From Verrucomicrobiales bacterium (GTDB taxonomy: Bacteria > Verrucomicrobiota > Verrucomicrobiia > Verrucomicrobiales > DEV007), in assembly GCA_029210205.1 (NCBI GenBank), contig JARGOD010000035.1, positions 1 to 47,911 of the forward strand: a stretch of DNA of 47,911 nucleotides, in the 5' to 3' direction. The stretch's first letter is position 1. The number at the start of each line of letters is the position of its first letter. The notes below the pieces were generated by a model. It was given only the letters and a program-made list of their open reading frames with translations. It was not told the DNA's origin and made no database searches. Both the position numbers and the translations under genes were made by a program. This document shows, piece by piece, positions 8,490 to 15,312 of the stretch.

Positions 8490-8723
8490 AAGACAGTAGT
8501 TGGATCATGACACTAGAATCCTGATTGGTGGACCCCGCAACTGGAGCGTCAATCAGCCGTGTTCTACTTTGGCAACGACATTAGGGCGCTAAGATACTGG
8601 TAGCTCGAAATGATCTAAATTTGATTCTTCGCCAACAAATGAAGAAGAAACGGTGATACAGCGGTTAAAAATAGAACAGTCCCCAATCTTTGGTGGAGAA
8701 CCCCGGAGAGCCTTCTAACTCGT

Positions 8724-8843
8724 TGATAACGAGTAAGCCATCTGTCGGACTCGAACCGACGACCTGCAGATTACAAATCAGCTGCTCTACCAACTGAGCT
8801 AAGATGGCGACTTCGACACGCCGTTTGGCGCGGGCGGGAATTT
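8724..8843. repeat. 120-bp direct repeat, left copy (contains tRNA-Thr)
   Basis: This 120-bp segment is identical, base for base by eye, to 15148-15267. It covers the whole tRNA-Thr gene, 12 bp downstream of it and 35 bp of GC-rich leader upstream. Sequence diverges immediately on both sides of each copy. The two copies are in the same orientation and enclose the five phosphorelay genes. Confidence 0.95.
8736..8808 (-). tRNA. tRNA-Thr (anticodon UGU), left copy
   Basis: The minus strand folds as a 73-nt cloverleaf: acceptor GCCATCT/AGATGGC, D-stem GCTC/GAGC, anticodon loop TTTGTAA with anticodon TGT at 34-36, T-arm GTCGG-TTCGAGT-CCGAC, discriminator T. CCA is not encoded. The anticodon stem GCTGA/TCTGC has a U-U mismatch at pair 29-41. 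UGU reads ACA and other ACN codons of threonine. The same tRNA recurs at 15160-15232. Upstream of this copy, beyond the repeat edge, the DNA belongs to the inserted block; the best promoter-like match (TTCAAA, 16 bp, CAAATT at 8839-8866) is poorer than that of the right copy. Confidence 0.95.
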
Positions 8844-8947
8844 GATCAACAAAAAAGGCATTTGAAGCTGAATTCTCTCGATCTACTTTTGAGGTCTTTG
8901 ATTCCAAAATACGCAGCTTAGATTCTAAACGTGGCGTCTCCAAAAAC

Positions 8948-9631
8948 TTATATCTCGACCGTTGCTCTAGTCCCCTCTCCTGGCTCCGACCTGAGAAAAA
9001 TCTGCCCGTCCAAACGATCAACTATCTTCTTCAGGATAGTCAGCCCTAACCCAGTTCCTTCAACTTCGTCTTTTGATCTGAGCATATAGAAAGGCTCAAA
9101 AACGTCCTCAAGGAATTCCTCTTCGATTCCAGTTCCGTCGTCAACTACTGCAACTTGGAGAGCTACAGACGTGTCGAGACAATGTATGCTCACTTTTCCC
9201 TCTGCGCCGTCTCGGTGTTTCGCTGCGTTAGATAAAAGACAATCCATGATCCACTCAAGAATCCAACGGTCTGCAAACGTCTTACATGGTCCACTACACA
9301 CCTCAAAGTGGATCGATGGGTAACGCTGCTTCATCCGATGAACCACTATTGAAGCTACCTCCGAAACGTCAATATCTACGGGGTTAAGCTTTATGCTCTC
9401 TATCTCCGACAAAAGGGATAAATTTGATAGTAACCCCTCCATGCGCTCAACCCGTGAATTGATTTTGCTCAGATGGTCTGCACTGTCAGGAGGAAGAGTA
9501 TCAACACAATCTTCGCGAACCCAGTCAGAGTAATTTTTTATCGCCCTTAACGGAGCTTTCAGATCATGAATTGCTCGGGCAAAAAACTGAATAGAGCTTT
9601 GCTCGGGGTATGGTCCACAGACTGCTTTCAT
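8948..9631 (-). CDS. Soluble sensor histidine kinase without sensor domain
   Basis: From the ATG at 9631 the protein has 227 residues; a TTG at 9709 would extend it by 26 residues and overlap the upstream gene by 22 bp, but that extension looks poorly protein-like. The phosphoacceptor is H22 in FARAIHDLKAPLRAI, a phytochrome-type HisKA box. The ATPase domain shows LLSNAAKH (N box), VVDDGTGIEEE (G1), FEPFYML (F box) and GTGLGLTI (G2). No transmembrane, PAS or receiver domain is present, so signal input must come from another protein, most likely the REC-kinase-REC product just upstream in the same transcript. Confidence 0.88.
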   Translation of the reverse strand: MKAVCGPYPEQSSIQFFARAIHDLKAPLRAIKNYSDWVREDCVDTLPPDSADHLSKINSRVERMEGLLSNLSLLSEIESIKLNPVDIDVSEVASIVVHRMKQRYPSIHFEVCSGPCKTFADRWILEWIMDCLLSNAAKHRDGAEGKVSIHCLDTSVALQVAVVDDGTGIEEEFLEDVFEPFYMLRSKDEVEGTGLGLTILKKIVDRLDGQIFLRSEPGEGTRATVEI

Positions 9632-9687
9632 CCGAATTAATGTTTTTCTCTTAGCGCAGACATTAAAGTCACACTCGTTTTTCCAAT

Positions 9688-11295
9688 TCAACCTGGAAGG
9701 GCAAGACAATCCTGATCATTACCATCAAGAATCTCGAGACCCTCGCTCAAAGAACTAAGGGAAAGGGGTTTTGCGAGTATCAGATCGACACCAATCGGTC
9801 GCTCACCGGTGGCGATCATCAGGTCACCAAACCCGCTAGCCATCACAAATTTCACTGTAGGCCACCCCTCCTTAATGATTCTAGCTAGTTCGTCACCACT
9901 TACTTCAGGCATTGATCGATCAGAAACTACTATGTCAGGAATGCTTTCTGGCGACCGACTGATTTCTTCTACGACCTCCTCAGCCGTATGAAACGACAAT
10001 ACTTCGTGGCCGAGTCTCTCCAACAGCCGCGTAACTAATGTTGCAATAATCGGCTCGTCATCTACGACAATAATTTTCAACCGCGTATCGACTGTCGCTC
10101 CGATTTTCAAATTTTTTGGCTGTTCACCACGAAGATTTGGATTGCACTCCTTTAGCTGAAAAGAGAATGAAGAACCTTTACCGAGTTCCGACTCTACACT
10201 TAGGCGACCTCCGAATGATTGCACTAACGAGTCTACCACGGCAAGCCCCAGACCGGTCCCTTCCAACCCCTTGGTTGTGTATAGTGCCTCGAGACACCGT
10301 TCGGTTGTCTCAGCGCTCATTCCACAGCCATCATCAGACACGGTTAGCTTCACTCCCCACGCAGACAGTTCTGAAGAAATGACTATTCTGCCTTGTGCCT
10401 CGCCAGAGACAGCATCAATTGCGTTAAACACCAAATTAACCAAAACCTCTCTGACCTTGGAAGCATCACACCAAACGTAGACCCCAGCTCTGGAATCCAC
10501 AGTGAATTTTATATCACTTCGCTCTCCATTTTGCCAACGTGCTGCAGTAAAGTCCTTAACTTCTTCAAGTAGTTGCGAAATCTCGACAGCTGTTTCCGAC
10601 GATTCTTGAGGTTCGCAGTAAAACTCGCGCATGCGCCTCACCGTTGTGGCGGCATCCGCAATCTGGGTTTCCATGCGGCCCATCAGACTATCTTTCTCCC
10701 CCGAATCCGATTTCATGAGTTCCATCGTACCCTGGAGGACAGTGAGAGAGTTGTTGAAATCATGTGCGATGCCTCCAGCCATTTGTCCCAAGGCTCGAAA
10801 TTTCTCAGCAGCGATTAGTTTCCCTTGGGCTGTATTCAAAGACTGTAGTGCCTCTCGAAGTTCCAAATTAGAACGTTGAAGCGCCTTCCGCGTGGCATTT
10901 TTCTCTCGCTCCGATTCAGCTGCTTCTACCTCTCGAAGAACGGCTGGCGTCAATCTTCTGAGATCATCTTTGGAAATAAAATCGGCGACTCCATGTCTCA
11001 TCAACTCAACGGCCTCCTGTGTATCAACAGTTCCGGAAACTAAGATTAGAGGAGTAAATTTGGATGGCCCATTTGCTCGAAATTCAAGTATCTCTTTCGA
11101 GGTCAACTTCGGGAGATGGTGATCGCAAATAACAATGTCTGCGTCTTCCTTCCTGAGCGCCTCGCCTATCTCTCTAGGATCACACACTACAGTGAATGCG
11201 GCATTAACACCGTCCCTCGAAAGGTGACGCGTAATCATTTCCGCATCGCTTTCGGAGTCCTCAATCACCAGAATTTTCAGTTCCTTGCTCATCAT
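9688..11295 (-). CDS. Hybrid REC-histidine kinase-REC protein
   Basis: A 535-residue cytoplasmic hybrid. Residues 6-125 form a receiver with ED at 12-13, phospho-acceptor D58 (VICDHHLP) and K109. A helical stretch (about 125-165) leads to the dimerisation box GGIAHDFNNSLTVLQ with H178. The ATPase domain has LVNLVFNAIDAV, VSDDGCGM and GLEGTGLGLAVV. A second receiver at 406-525 has DDE at 412-414, D459 (VVSDRSMPE) and K509. The GGIAHDFNN box is typical of hybrid kinases that sense through an N-terminal receiver. With receivers at both ends it can both accept and donate phosphate inside a relay. It is second in a leftward operon starting with the single receiver at 11741; no output domain is present. 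Confidence 0.92.
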   Translation of the reverse strand: MMSKELKILVIEDSESDAEMITRHLSRDGVNAAFTVVCDPREIGEALRKEDADIVICDHHLPKLTSKEILEFRANGPSKFTPLILVSGTVDTQEAVELMRHGVADFISKDDLRRLTPAVLREVEAAESEREKNATRKALQRSNLELREALQSLNTAQGKLIAAEKFRALGQMAGGIAHDFNNSLTVLQGTMELMKSDSGEKDSLMGRMETQIADAATTVRRMREFYCEPQESSETAVEISQLLEEVKDFTAARWQNGERSDIKFTVDSRAGVYVWCDASKVREVLVNLVFNAIDAVSGEAQGRIVISSELSAWGVKLTVSDDGCGMSAETTERCLEALYTTKGLEGTGLGLAVVDSLVQSFGGRLSVESELGKGSSFSFQLKECNPNLRGEQPKNLKIGATVDTRLKIIVVDDEPIIATLVTRLLERLGHEVLSFHTAEEVVEEISRSPESIPDIVVSDRSMPEVSGDELARIIKEGWPTVKFVMASGFGDLMIATGERPIGVDLILAKPLSLSSLSEGLEILDGNDQDCLALPG

Positions 11296-11375
11296 TTGAA
11301 ACTCAGACTTTCTTAAGTTTATGACAATTTTTTATAATTACAATAAATAATTCAATTTGCTATTTTGCCGTCTTT

Positions 11376-11741
11376 TCAATTCCCCAGAACTTCAGCCAAT
11401 GCGACATCGAGATCACTAAGTCTGTCCTTCGACACCAACTTAGTCGCGTAACTCTTCATCGACTCCAAAACGCTTGAAATATCCCCCGAAACTACAACAA
11501 CCGGAATCTCAGGCGAATCTGATCTACACAGTTCCAGCGCTTTCTCAGTAGGCAGCCCAGGGACATTAGAGTCACAAAAAATCACGTCGGCCCGATGTGA
11601 GCTCAGCGCATCAGAGAATGAGGATAAATCGGAGACAACGACCTCTCTGACTTCATATCCGATCCTGGAGAGATGTCTAATGAGGAATATGACGTCGTCT
11701 TCATTGTCCTCGATGATGATTGCCCTCAGAAGCGTCTTCAT
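11376..11741 (-). CDS. Single-domain response regulator
   Basis: A 121-residue stand-alone receiver: acidic pair ED at 11-12, phosphorylation site D57 in IFCDSNVPG, S/T position in VVSGD and K105 in LVSKDRL. Nothing follows the receiver, so it can only act through protein contact, as a phosphate shuttle or sink. It resembles the first receiver of the adjacent hybrid kinase (both have ICD/FCD around the acceptor, LVSG/VVSG, and IS/VSKD around the lysine), which suggests intra-cluster duplication. First gene of the leftward operon; ATG at 11741 faces the divergent kinase across 83 AT-rich bp. Confidence 0.9.
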   Translation of the reverse strand: MKTLLRAIIIEDNEDDVIFLIRHLSRIGYEVREVVVSDLSSFSDALSSHRADVIFCDSNVPGLPTEKALELCRSDSPEIPVVVVSGDISSVLESMKSYATKLVSKDRLSDLDVALAEVLGN

Positions 11742-11789
11742 GTTATAATTTTCATAATTTATGTTTTATTTAACTTAATCAATAGTAAA

Positions 11790-11811
11790 TTGATCACCGA
11801 AAATCGATCAA
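11790..11811. promoter_or_regulatory. GATC-type inverted repeat in divergent promoter
   Basis: TTGATC (11790-11795) and GATCAA (11806-11811) are perfect inverted half-sites with a 10-bp spacer, in the 83-bp AT-rich region between the divergent halves of the phosphorelay block. A further CGATCC lies just before the ATG at 11825. It could be an operator for both operons, but the block encodes no DNA-binding protein. Confidence 0.35.
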
Positions 11812-11824
11812 ACCGACCGATCCA

Positions 11825-14563
11825 ATGAACGCTCGATTCCGAATACCCACGATCTGCATCTCACTGATATCGGCATTAATGGCTCTATCGGTGATGATCG
11901 GCTGGTTCATTGAAAGCAAGTCATTGGTTCAGGTCATTGGAGTTTCGGCTCCAATGCAATTCAACACCGCCTTGGGATTCCTTCTTTCAGCGATAGGGCT
12001 CGGAGCACTCCTTTTACCGGCGAAACTCAAATATGTTCCCATTGGCTCAGCCATTGCCATTATCCTGCTTAGTAGCATCACTGCGATGCAAACTATTTTC
12101 TCTATCAATTTAGGTATAGACACCCTTTTCGTAGAGCCATTTCTTGCAGATCGAACGGACTATCCGGGCCGAATGTCGTCAATCTCCTCGATCTGCTTTG
12201 TCCTCACAGGAGTCATTCTGATCCTCAACGCGGAAACCTACAAACGTCCCGCTTCACCTGCAACGTCCGGCCTAATCTCTTCAGTTCTTTTAGCAATTTC
12301 TCTAACTGTCTTATTGGCCTACTTTGCAGGCCTGACTGATACGAAAGAGTGGATCCCTTTCACCAAAATGGCGATTCATACCACCATCGGCTTTCTAATT
12401 TTAAGCATAGCCCTAACTCTCAGAGCTATCAGTGCCACAGACCAAAGTCCCCACGGCTCCAATTGGTTCAAATTCTCCGTTTTCGTTTCAACACTCGGAG
12501 TTTCGGTATGCCTCTCTAGCATAATCAGATCATCAGAGCTCCAAAGGACTGAGCAAGAACTTAGCCGAGTCGCTGAAAACGTCGCCATTGACACGCGGAC
12601 GAACATTGATCTAGGCCATCTTGCCGTAAAGAGAATTGCTGATGATTGGAAAGCCTCAGAAGCAAAAACTGTCGCAGGTCAACAGCCGATATGGGAGTCG
12701 GCGATCGTACGCTCAACAAGGGAGTTTACCCCTCTGAAAGCAATTGCTCTAATCAATGATGAAACCGAGATCGAGTGGATAGACCCTCCCATCTCAGATG
12801 ATATTGAAGATGCTATCAAGGATACGGATAAGTTTATTATAGCGCTTGCTAAGTTGACCACATCAATGGAAATGGCTCAATCCTGTTCCATTGCCTTACC
12901 TGACCCTCAAGGCTTCAAGCCTTCGATAATAATTTGCGAGCCAATTTTCAGTGGTAATAAAAAGAAGTTTATCGCAGGTCTGTTTTCACCTGAAATTTTA
13001 TTTCAAAAAGTTCTACAGGAGCAAACTCGATCAAAATTTCACGTTTCAATTACGAACGCACAAGGAGTGATATTCAAAACCGAAAACACTCTGAACGATC
13101 CAGCGAAAGGAAAGATTGGTCGCGCGATTGTACCATCCGAATTAGCCCCGTGGACGATATCAGTGTCACCCTCTGCATCATTTGTATCAGCCAACAAGTC
13201 AGCCATCCCGCAACTTAGTCTGGTATTCGGAGTCTTGCTTTCACTCGCTTTGACCTCCGCTGTCTATCTCAAAGAAAAAGCAGACAGAAAGGCAGTTACC
13301 GCACTGCGGGCTAGTCAGGATCTACAGAAAGAGATCACATTAAGACAGACTGCTGAAATCGCCGTCCTGGAAGCGAATAGCGTGCTGGAAGAGAAAGTTG
13401 CTCAACAGGTTTCGCAACTAGAGGAGAGCTCTAACAAACTCCGACTTGCTATTAGCGGATCTGGTGTGGGAACTTGGCATTACGATCTCGAAGAAGAGGT
13501 CATAGAGTTTTCAGAACGTGCAAAAGAACTATTTGGACTGAGTCCGAGTGATGAGATTTCTTATCCAATTTTTCAGTCGCTGCTCCACGAAGAAGACCGT
13601 GAACGAGTGTCGAAAGAGGTAGCGGAAGCTATCCAAGAAGGGACTGAGTATGACATCGAATACCAAGTGGAATGGCCGAATGGTGAAACACATTGGATCG
13701 CTGCAAAAGGGCAGGCATTTTATTCATCCGACGGAAATGCTGTTCGAATGGAGGGTATCGTGCTCGATATAGATGAAAGAAAAGAAGCACAAGCGAAGCT
13801 CGAACAACTCCATGACGATATGGGAACGATGCTCTACGTGCTTTCTCATGACCTGAAAGAACCGGTCAGATCAATTGTTAATTTCTCTGAGATCATTGCG
13901 GAGGATTACTCGGAATCTCTTTGCGAAACCAGTCAAGAGTATCTCAAGCGGCTACACCGAGCTGGGACAAGATTGAATTTACTGTTAGAAGATGTACTGC
14001 AATTAGCGAAAACACGCTCAATGCCTGAACCCTCAGATCTCATCGAATTGAAAGAGATCGTTCTCGATGTAATCGAACAGAACAACGCTTCAATCGAGGA
14101 GACAGGAGCCTCTATAAATGTTGAAGATGAACTGCCGGCGGTCATTGCGTCACCACAGTGGGCTACTCAGGCAGTTCATAATCTTGTTTCTAACGCGCTA
14201 AAATTCTCAAGCGCATCGGGACCTCCCCATATTGAAATCAAGGCTTTCAACGGAAGAACGGAAGCAGGTATTATAGTAGAAGACAACGGCCCCGGAGTTC
14301 CTCCCGAGATCTCCACAAAAATCTTTCAGCTTTTTCAAAGAGGAGTCGATCGAGATGTTCAGGGGACAGGAGTAGGGCTAGCAATTGTTAAGCAGGTTGC
14401 AGAGAGACACGGAGGGCACGCTTGGTGTGAACCACGCGAAGTGGAAGGAACTCGAATGATTCTAACTTTCTCTAAGAAGAGTAGGCTAGATTTCTCGAAC
14501 AAAGGAACTGCACCGCGAGAGTCAAAACCCCAGCTCTCTACGGTAATTTCGGAGGTGCAATAG
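11825..14563 (+). CDS. Membrane sensor histidine kinase with PAS domain
   Basis: A 912-residue kinase. Seven hydrophobic segments fill residues 10-235 (about 10-29, 45-65, 71-93, 117-135, 149-170, 182-202, 215-234), a MASE-like membrane sensor. Residues 240-460 look like a periplasmic CHASE-like loop, closed by an eighth segment at about 462-482. A coiled coil (485-538) is followed by a PAS domain (540-655; SGSGVGTWHYDLEEE, then a PAC-like WPNGETHW motif). HisKA has H675 in LSHDLKEPVRSI, the phytochrome-type box shared with the kinase at 8948-9631. The ATPase domain shows LVSNALKFS, VEDNGPGVP and GTGVGLAIV. Signal could be a membrane-soluble or periplasmic ligand. The receiver gene 39 bp downstream is its probable partner. 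Confidence 0.9.
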   Translation: MNARFRIPTICISLISALMALSVMIGWFIESKSLVQVIGVSAPMQFNTALGFLLSAIGLGALLLPAKLKYVPIGSAIAIILLSSITAMQTIFSINLGIDTLFVEPFLADRTDYPGRMSSISSICFVLTGVILILNAETYKRPASPATSGLISSVLLAISLTVLLAYFAGLTDTKEWIPFTKMAIHTTIGFLILSIALTLRAISATDQSPHGSNWFKFSVFVSTLGVSVCLSSIIRSSELQRTEQELSRVAENVAIDTRTNIDLGHLAVKRIADDWKASEAKTVAGQQPIWESAIVRSTREFTPLKAIALINDETEIEWIDPPISDDIEDAIKDTDKFIIALAKLTTSMEMAQSCSIALPDPQGFKPSIIICEPIFSGNKKKFIAGLFSPEILFQKVLQEQTRSKFHVSITNAQGVIFKTENTLNDPAKGKIGRAIVPSELAPWTISVSPSASFVSANKSAIPQLSLVFGVLLSLALTSAVYLKEKADRKAVTALRASQDLQKEITLRQTAEIAVLEANSVLEEKVAQQVSQLEESSNKLRLAISGSGVGTWHYDLEEEVIEFSERAKELFGLSPSDEISYPIFQSLLHEEDRERVSKEVAEAIQEGTEYDIEYQVEWPNGETHWIAAKGQAFYSSDGNAVRMEGIVLDIDERKEAQAKLEQLHDDMGTMLYVLSHDLKEPVRSIVNFSEIIAEDYSESLCETSQEYLKRLHRAGTRLNLLLEDVLQLAKTRSMPEPSDLIELKEIVLDVIEQNNASIEETGASINVEDELPAVIASPQWATQAVHNLVSNALKFSSASGPPHIEIKAFNGRTEAGIIVEDNGPGVPPEISTKIFQLFQRGVDRDVQGTGVGLAIVKQVAERHGGHAWCEPREVEGTRMILTFSKKSRLDFSNKGTAPRESKPQLSTVISEVQ

Positions 14564-14601
14564 TGATTGCACTAACAGCTTAATAAGCTATTACTGATAT
14601 T

Positions 14602-15042
14602 ATGGCTTCTCAAAATTTCCTTTCCATTCTTCTTGTCGAAGACAACGATGACGACGTCATTTTCTTGGAAAGATGTATGAAAAAGGCAAATCTCGGACAT
14701 CGATTGTCGCGAGTTTCAAACGGCGTGGAAGCCATGAATTACCTTTTGAAAGTTTCACCGTTTGAGGATGCAAATCTACCGAGCTTAGTTCTTCTTGATC
14801 TGAATATGCCCCGCAAAGACGGAATTTCAGTCCTGAAAGAGGTCAAAGCTCATCCCGCGCTCAAACACATCCCCGTCGTCGTTTTCACCTCCAGCAAACA
14901 AGAATCCGAAATCAGACGCTGCTATGCAGAAGGCGCAAGTTCATTCATTCCAAAGCTAACCGACTCCGAAGAGCTGAAGAAGCTGTTCACCACATTCTCA
15001 GAATATTGGGAGAGGGTAGCGTGTATCCCCAACGCGGTCTAA
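14602..15042 (+). CDS. Rcp1-type single-domain response regulator
   Basis: A 146-residue receiver of the subtype partnered with phytochrome-like kinases: LLVEDNDDDVIFLERCMKKA (acidic triad start), NGVEAMNYL, phosphorylation site D66 in LVLLDLNMPRKDG, VVFTSS and K118 in FIPKLTD. The insertion between the first helix and the acceptor strand and the C-terminal YWERV helix are typical of Rcp1. It has no output domain and must signal by protein contact. It lies 38 bp after the membrane kinase with which it most likely pairs; its start is the ATG at 14602 with no clear Shine-Dalgarno. A weak hairpin TGCAG-TCG-CTGCA at 15063-15075 follows the stop. Confidence 0.9.
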   Translation: MASQNFLSILLVEDNDDDVIFLERCMKKANLGHRLSRVSNGVEAMNYLLKVSPFEDANLPSLVLLDLNMPRKDGISVLKEVKAHPALKHIPVVVFTSSKQESEIRRCYAEGASSFIPKLTDSEELKKLFTTFSEYWERVACIPNAV

Positions 15043-15147
15043 GTTCGGGAGTGTTTCTACCGTGCAGTCGCTGCAAGACTTCATTTACATCTGCGCGATC
15101 AATGGCGTCCCAAGTGGATGACTGATTGAGTTAGAGCCGGAAGCCCC

Positions 15148-15267
15148 TGATAACGAGTAAGCCATCTGTCGGACTCGAACCGACGACCTGCAGATTACAA
15201 ATCAGCTGCTCTACCAACTGAGCTAAGATGGCGACTTCGACACGCCGTTTGGCGCGGGCGGGAATTT
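15148..15267. repeat. 120-bp direct repeat, right copy (contains tRNA-Thr)
   Basis: Identical to 8724-8843 over 120 bp in the same orientation. It ends exactly one base inside the -10 box of the tRNA promoter: the conserved part contributes AAATT and the flank supplies the leading T. Confidence 0.95.
15160..15232 (-). tRNA. tRNA-Thr (anticodon UGU), right copy
   Basis: Identical to the tRNA at 8736-8808, including the U-U mismatch at pair 29-41 of the anticodon stem and the lack of encoded CCA. The cloverleaf is otherwise fully paired. The promoter upstream (15263-15290) is close to a standard housekeeping one, so this is probably the native, main expressed copy. Confidence 0.95.
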
Positions 15268-15290
15268 AACCTCGGAATAGCGTCCTGCAA
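15263..15290 (-). promoter_or_regulatory. Probable sigma-70 promoter of right tRNA-Thr copy
   Basis: On the minus strand, TTGCAG (15290-15285) and TAAATT (15268-15263) are separated by 16 bp, followed by a GC-rich segment (CCCGCCCGCG) at the expected start site. A GC-rich discriminator is typical of stable-RNA promoters under stringent control. The tRNA 5' end lies 30 bp from the -10 box, giving a short leader. Confidence 0.5.
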
Positions 15291-15312
15291 GAGGTCGTTT
15301 TCGGATTTTTGC

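What the first reader, a model, noticed from the sequence alone, without database searches (positions are those of the whole stretch)
8724..15267. Five-gene phosphorelay block bounded by 120-bp direct repeats that each hold a whole tRNA-Thr
The sequence shows two identical 120-bp repeats in direct orientation, each with a complete tRNA-Thr(UGU). Between them lie only two-component genes, in AT-richer DNA. Known tRNA-integrating islands duplicate just the 3' end of the tRNA and encode an integrase; here the whole gene and leader are duplicated and no integrase is present. Inference: entry by homologous recombination of a tRNA-carrying circle, or by an integrase acting in trans, giving an excisable signalling cassette.
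Basis: partly seen in the sequence, partly recalled or inferred. Interest (0 to 1): 0.75.

Follow-up and report, generated by a model that had tools for sequence, protein, structure and literature searches.

The report
Signalling genes inserted at a tRNA
In an uncultured Akkermansiaceae-related bacterium, a five-gene signalling cassette of foreign composition sits inside a tRNA-threonine gene that relatives also use as an insertion hotspot, but here the whole tRNA gene, not just its end, was duplicated, so the way the cassette got in remains unusual and unproven.

Summary
Two identical 120-bp direct repeats (8724-8843, 15148-15267), each with a complete tRNA-Thr(UGU), bracket five two-component genes in DNA of 46.0% G+C against 54.7% in the rest of the window, with no recombinase found.

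It looks like an insertion, not an old duplication. In 32 same-genus genomes the block's large kinase has only distant kinase-family matches (at most 39% identity), and no second whole tRNA-Thr was seen. The left copy keeps the native 3' side (terminator-like hairpin); the right copy keeps the native 5' side (promoter-like elements, then ndh). Joined flanks match uninterrupted tRNA-Thr loci of relatives. Outside the tRNA the two copies agree at 47 of 47 positions, where G011, G026 and G024 differ at 12, 14 and 11: recent or homogenised, and this lineage's own sequence.

tRNA-Thr is an integration hotspot in the genus: relatives carry 3'-half copies ending near the anticodon loop, and five have a tyrosine integrase beside the gene. 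The window differs: whole gene plus leader duplicated, no integrase. Single-crossover integration of a circle bearing a conspecific tRNA-Thr fits best (0.5). Trans-acting integrase, local duplication with illegitimate insertion, and an assembly artefact remain open. Excisability is untested.

The parts
8680..8699 (-). terminator-like hairpin of the tRNA-Thr unit, kept by the left copy
   Evidence: terminator scan; 8661-8707 matches the flank of the distal partial tRNA copy in G017 (85%, 47 bp) and 8668-8703 matches beside the outermost tRNA 3'-end copy in G011 (89%, 36 bp)
8724..8843 (.). left copy of the 120-bp direct repeat
   Evidence: identical to 15148-15267
8736..8808 (-). tRNA-Thr(UGU), left copy; native terminator side, lacks the conserved -35-like element
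   Evidence: ARAGORN; sequences of relatives
8948..9709 (-). soluble histidine kinase (HisKA-HATPase_c), 253 aa
9688..11295 (-). hybrid REC-HisKA-HATPase_c-REC protein, 535 aa
   Evidence: relatives at 40-44% in G025, G044, G077, G028
11376..11741 (-). single-domain response regulator, 121 aa
11825..14563 (+). membrane sensor histidine kinase (hydrophobic N-terminal stretches, PAS, HisKA, HATPase_c), 912 aa
14602..15042 (+). single-domain response regulator, 146 aa
15148..15267 (.). right copy of the 120-bp direct repeat
15160..15232 (-). tRNA-Thr(UGU), right copy; native promoter side, no terminator-like hairpin found downstream of it
15263..15291 (-). promoter-like elements of tRNA-Thr (minus strand CTTGCA, 17 nt, TAAATT); the repeat edge falls inside the second element
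   Evidence: read by eye from sequences of relatives and pairwise alignments; the sigma-70 consensus scan did not report it

Best explanation
The block is one cassette of an additive (gain/loss) tRNA hotspot. Shown: it lies inside the tRNA-Thr unit, was not found in the sampled relatives, and the native 3' side stayed with the left tRNA copy and the native 5' side with the right one. Inferred: a circular (or donor) molecule carrying the block next to a complete tRNA-Thr from the same species entered by a single crossover inside the shared 120 bp (tRNA + 12 bp trailer + 35 bp leader), which duplicates the whole tRNA and keeps a complete tRNA on both sides. The cassette probably encodes a coherent phosphorelay: a membrane PAS kinase with a stand-alone receiver, and a divergent operon of a receiver, a REC-kinase-REC hybrid and a soluble kinase; no DNA-binding domain was found, so it probably feeds a host effector by phosphotransfer or protein contact. 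The left tRNA probably depends on read-through from the kinase operon, the right one on the native promoter. The 120-bp repeats would let RecA delete the block and restore one tRNA.
For: The left copy's 3' flank and the right copy's 5' flank each match relatives; joined flanks match G024 without interruption over 155 bp at 86% and G016 over 171 bp at 79%. In 32 same-genus genomes the large kinase has only distant matches, best-scoring 38%, highest 39% identity, in 9 genomes, and none at E<=1e-75 in the other 386 of 387 phylum genomes (two candidates scored per genome). Variable positions of the repeat, compared without gaps: 0 of 47 differ between the copies; 12, 14 and 11 of 47 differ against G011, G026 and G024, the tRNA being identical in all, so the duplicated piece is this lineage's own sequence. 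Hotspot: partial copies in relatives, an integrase within about 130 bp of tRNA-Thr in five, both ends of a 27-kb island on one contig in G014. Composition. Hybrid, kinase and receiver recur as neighbours in G025, G044 and G028, with no tRNA in the stretches read.
Against: No circle, read pair or second strain was seen. No genome with SYLF directly beside tRNA-Thr and ndh on one contig was found: G011 has 4.7 kb between SYLF and the tRNA, and in G026 the two sides are on different contigs. No donor with block plus tRNA-Thr was found. The near trailer motif (TAACT.GTTGA) also occurs at tRNA copies beside integrases in G014, G016, G018 and G028, so that motif alone does not prove which side is native; the 36-47 bp matches further out carry that point. 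Assemblies can collapse identical copies, so a second whole tRNA in a relative could be hidden. A single integrase or illegitimate event would leave the same final structure.
Confidence: 0.5

Rival explanations
1. Integrase in trans: a tRNA-Thr-specific tyrosine recombinase of another element integrated an integrase-less cassette whose attP carries a complete tRNA-Thr with leader.
For: tRNA-Thr is an integrase target in this genus; orientation is the usual one, native 3' side distal. The bin holds three integrases of that family at 37-44% identity, and the bin is only 86.6% complete.
Against: The eight partial copies inspected in relatives (seven genomes) end at or within a few bases of the anticodon loop; none is a whole gene with leader. 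None of the bin's three family members was seen at tRNA-Thr: the 44% one is at tRNA-Arg, the C151 one next to a predicted tRNA-SeC, the C55 one near a contig end without the tRNA-Thr 3' 12-mer. The shared leader and trailer are species-private, unlike a foreign attP.
Confidence: 0.18
2. Local duplication with illegitimate insertion: a break across the tRNA unit was repaired with captured DNA, copying 120 bp of target on both sides, or a tandem tRNA pair formed first and the block landed between.
For: The copied 120 bp is species-private. Two genomes of another family in the order (G146, G232) show two tRNA-Thr matches 274 and 149 bp apart, start to start.
Against: None of 26 same-genus genomes with a tRNA-Thr match of at least 70 nt shows a tandem pair. 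Insertion exactly at the pair's junction would be a coincidence; a 120-bp target duplication fits no transposon I know (recall).
Confidence: 0.15
3. Assembly effect: the block is an episome of 6424 bp, or lies at another site, and shares the 120-bp tRNA segment with an uninterrupted chromosome locus; the assembler walked through the loop.
For: MAG of 195 contigs. Contig ends lie within 300 bp of the 3' side of tRNA-Thr in 6 of 26 relatives against 0.44 expected (threshold chosen after seeing the data), so this site is hard to assemble or mixed in populations. No reads available.
Against: Only two copies of the tRNA 3' 12-mer exist in the bin, both in this contig. No replication gene among the five main proteins and no plasmid match to the large kinase at E<=1e-60.
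Confidence: 0.14
4. Old duplication kept identical by gene conversion, block ancestral and lost in relatives.
For: Gene conversion could also give 100% identity.
Against: Block kinase not found in 32 same-genus relatives; no second whole tRNA seen in the 26 with a tRNA match of at least 70 nt; foreign composition.
Confidence: 0.03

Closest known systems
Additive flexible genomic islands at tRNA genes (Alteromonas, Actinomarinales, Methylophilaceae; PMC4119200, PMC5217437, PMC7771536, PMC10872708: passages seen)
   Same: A conserved tRNA serves as repeated target for gene cassettes that differ between strains; direct repeats of tRNA sequence mark the insertion.
   Different: In the passages seen the repeats are partial (last 52 nt, last 20 bp, the 3' end, 'part of the tRNA gene'); here the whole gene, 12 bp of trailer and 35 bp of leader.
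Integrase-encoding islands at tRNA-Thr in the same genus (G014, G016, G018, G028, G009)
   Same: Same tRNA, same side of it; in G014 both ends are on one contig.
   Different: They carry a tyrosine recombinase beside the tRNA; the distal copy in G014, and the partial copies on other contigs of the other four, are incomplete.
Tycheposons (Prochlorococcus; seen here only through passages of PMC10872708; original paper not read)
   Same: tRNA-bordered cargo-carrying elements.
   Different: The tyrosine recombinase named there is absent here; target-site details not tested.

Membership tests
Additive tRNA flexible genomic island cassette | insertion at a tRNA that is a recurrent target in relatives | tested here: met
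   partial copies or adjacent integrases at tRNA-Thr in relatives
Additive tRNA flexible genomic island cassette | presence/absence variation of the cassette among relatives | tested here: met
   block kinase not found in 32 of 32 other same-genus genomes, several of them incomplete; strain-level variation not testable
Additive tRNA flexible genomic island cassette | direct repeat of part (3' end) of the tRNA at the far end | tested here: not met
   the far copy is the whole tRNA plus leader; it is filed as a variant, not as a typical member
Integrative element with tyrosine recombinase / tycheposon | recombinase gene within the element | tested here: not met
   no recombinase among the five main proteins
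Two-component phosphorelay | kinase and receiver domains with conserved His and Asp | tested here: met
   Pfam domains, motifs; phosphotransfer itself not testable
LvrA/LvrB hybrid kinases (NCBIfam) | score above curated cut-off | tested here: not met
   166.7 bits against a cut-off of 500 for the hybrid protein
Excisable element | circular junction or empty site in the same strain | not testable with these tools
   no reads or strain

The most novel reading that the evidence does not exclude
An integrase-free gene-cassette system in which cargo travels with a complete tRNA gene and enters and leaves a tRNA locus by homologous recombination, always leaving a whole tRNA on each side; the tRNA serves as a portable homology arm, so a cell can gain or lose a signalling module without any site-specific recombinase.
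Probability: 0.12. Interest if true: 0.7.

Novelty: new variant of a known kind. Interest (0 to 1): 0.42.

Why it matters
tRNA hotspots are usually explained by integrases that copy the tRNA 3' end. A cassette that duplicates the whole tRNA with its leader, splits promoter side from terminator side, and carries no recombinase shows another outcome at the same hotspot and points to how integrase-less islands could be gained and lost. With one example in one MAG it is a lead, not a system.

Tried and rejected
Old duplication: disfavoured and by the lack of a second whole copy in the 26 same-genus relatives with a tRNA-Thr match of at least 70 nt; six of the 32 gave no such match.

Tandem tRNA-Thr pair as precursor in the genus: not seen among those 26. 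In the order, 13 of 218 genomes with a match (386 searched) had two (G000, G014, G015, G017, G073, G203, G146, G167, G189, G195, G232, G328, G343). G014, G015 and G017 are full plus partial, G073 full plus partial at contig ends, G343 on two contigs, G146 and G232 close pairs; for G203, G167, G189, G195 and G328 the two places were not both printed, so a case like the window's is not excluded there. One search scored only two candidates per genome.

A broken tRNA-Thr in G009: rejected; it is a gap of N with overlapping ends.

The 14-22 bp tRNA 3'-end copies in G011, G026, G005 and G006 were first read as integrase scars; the ones next to the tRNA are ends of a hairpin-rich repeat unit, so they are not counted as integrase evidence. 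The same units, tandem in G026, may also explain some of the contig ends counted.

An integrase contig in the same bin (C168), first thought to start at tRNA-Thr, starts at tRNA-Arg.

A plasmid search with the large kinase (E<=1e-60), an exact 28-nt leader search of viral contigs and a viral search with the hybrid protein gave nothing. Literature: searches for whole or complete tRNA duplication at islands gave 0, 1 and 49 papers; the one describes ordinary 3' repeats in the passages seen, and only 15 titles and abstract starts were seen, none opened. A search for rtT RNA with tyrT found none. Absence from print is not claimed beyond these.
Full report
What is there. The window is contig C154 of a 4.9-Mb MAG in 195 contigs, 86.6% complete. 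The closest ndh relatives in named records are MAGs labelled Verrucomicrobiales or Akkermansiaceae. The repeat is exactly as reported: 8724-8843 equals 15148-15267 over 120 bp, each with a full tRNA-Thr(UGU) on the minus strand. It consists of 12 bp trailer, 73 nt tRNA and 35 bp leader. Between the copies are five open genes, all two-component proteins: a soluble kinase, a REC-kinase-REC hybrid overlapping it by 22 bp, a lone receiver (all minus), then a 912-aa membrane PAS kinase and a lone receiver (plus). His and Asp motifs are present. No DNA-binding domain and no recombinase were found among the five.

Composition. The block has G+C 0.460; 289 other overlapping windows of the same size in the contig range from 0.522 to 0.570. 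GC3 is 0.44-0.53 in the block genes and 0.60-0.71 in six flanking genes.

Which flank is native. The left copy's outer (3') side matches relatives: similarity to tRNA-Thr loci runs to 8713-8716 in several, and 8661-8707 and 8668-8703 match the sequence beside the outermost tRNA 3'-end copies of G017 (85%) and G011 (89%). This stretch holds a terminator-like hairpin. Against over-reading: the near trailer motif also sits at tRNA copies next to integrases in G014, G016, G018 and G028, so only the outer matches speak for nativeness. The right copy's outer (5') side matches G011 towards ndh (93% over 181 bp) and G026 (90% over 151 bp). Elements like CTTGCA and TAAATT (minus strand) recur upstream of the tRNA in most of the relatives printed, with variation; a sigma-70 scan did not report them. 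The repeat ends five bases into the second one, so the left copy has lost the first. The block thus appears to split the transcription unit: promoter with the right tRNA, terminator with the left. Collapsing one copy gives a sequence that aligns without interruption to G024 (86%, 155 bp) and G016 (79%, 171 bp). These are tRNA-Thr loci without this block, but not SYLF-tRNA-ndh empty sites: in G011 SYLF and tRNA are 4.7 kb apart with other ORFs between, and in G026 the two sides lie on different contigs.

Age. The tRNA is identical in window, G011, G026 and G024. In the 47 other repeat positions, compared without gaps, the two window copies agree fully, whereas G011, G026 and G024 differ at 12, 14 and 11. 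The duplication is therefore recent or homogenised, and the extra copy is made of this lineage's own sequence.

Distribution. With the 912-aa kinase, 9 of 32 other same-genus genomes give matches at E<=1e-30, all distant (29-39% identity, mostly the kinase domain). Of 387 phylum genomes only the window's own passes E 1e-75 (two candidates scored per genome). The hybrid has relatives at 32-44% in 7 other genomes of 386 in the order (three candidates scored per genome). In G025, G044 and G028 it is followed by a kinase similar to 8948-9709 (36-37%; it also matches the kinase domain of the large one at 30-35%) and a receiver similar to 14602-15042 (30-32%), with no tRNA within the six stretches read. 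So the cargo is a recurring module type, here at a tRNA.

The hotspot. Partial tRNA-Thr copies occur in ten of 32 same-genus genomes: in G007, G009, G014, G015, G016 (two), G017, G018 and G023 they run from the 3' end to the anticodon region; in G028 the copy is cut by a contig end; in G031 only an inner stretch matches. Eight copies from seven genomes were read base by base: identity ends at GATTACAAA or up to a few bases beyond, in the anticodon loop or stem. In G014 the partial copy and the full tRNA are 27 kb apart on one contig, with an integrase next to the tRNA. Related integrases (42-100% to the G018 one; identical in G016 and G018) lie within about 130 bp of tRNA-Thr in G014, G016, G018, G028 and G009. 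In 6 of 26 genomes the contig ends within 300 bp of the tRNA's 3' side, against 0.44 expected from rounded contig numbers, a threshold chosen afterwards; this fits repeats or mixed populations at the site, and in G026 it is a tandem hairpin unit. These facts support insertion at a hotspot and show that the ordinary mechanism here copies only the 3' half.

Mechanism. The final structure alone does not identify the event. A crossover between the chromosome and a circle carrying the block beside a complete tRNA-Thr gives it directly, and the species-private leader and trailer argue for a tRNA taken from this species rather than a foreign att site. An integrase in trans would need an attP with the whole tRNA; none of the inspected partial copies shows that, and the bin's three nearest integrases of that family (44, 39, 37%) were not seen at tRNA-Thr. 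Local duplication with captured DNA, and an assembler walking through a loop formed by a circular molecule sharing the tRNA, remain possible. I put the circle with homologous crossover at 0.5.

Verdict. A probably recent signalling islet in a tRNA-Thr hotspot; unusual in whole-gene duplication and lack of integrase; mechanism open; one example.

Noticed in passing
L073 12257-12400, L081 7898-8040, L090 3850-3971, L110 26-173, L112 106-246, L019 1376-1514, L085 10214-10362 (relatives; not in the window): Downstream of tRNA-Thr in seven relatives (and over two contigs in G026) lies a 120-150 bp hairpin-rich unit that ends in a copy of the last ~14 nt of the tRNA (incomplete in G022); by eye G005, G006 and G021 run on into a second unit. 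On the tRNA strand fold z is -4.8 (G011), -2.1 (G005), -1.9 (G006); on the other strand -3.5, -0.6, -2.8. An alignment of seven gives a branched structure, 5 of 21 pairs with two-sided changes, but a covariation term of +1.33, which does not support it. No Rfam family fits in the loci scanned. It recalls, from memory, the RtT repeats after E. coli tRNA-Tyr; a candidate structured RNA.
   Followed up: partly
G000:C168 (L170 5-1414): A 407-aa tyrosine integrase about 110 bp from a tRNA-Arg(UCU) at a contig start in the same genome, 44% identical to the tRNA-Thr integrase of G018: one integrase family with different tRNA targets.
   Followed up: partly
G000:C151 and C55 (L104, L105): Two further integrases of the same family (37-39%); the C151 match begins about 150 bp after a predicted tRNA-SeC.
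   Followed up: no
L098 238-1542 and L088 11977-13278: G016 and G018 carry an identical 434-aa integrase beside tRNA-Thr: the same element in two genomes counted as different species, or very close genomes.
   Followed up: no
L073 9155-10573: G011 carries an FHA-domain-like protein (named by eye from its sequence) with long, nearly identical coiled-coil-like repeats and an N gap, between SYLF and tRNA-Thr.
   Followed up: no
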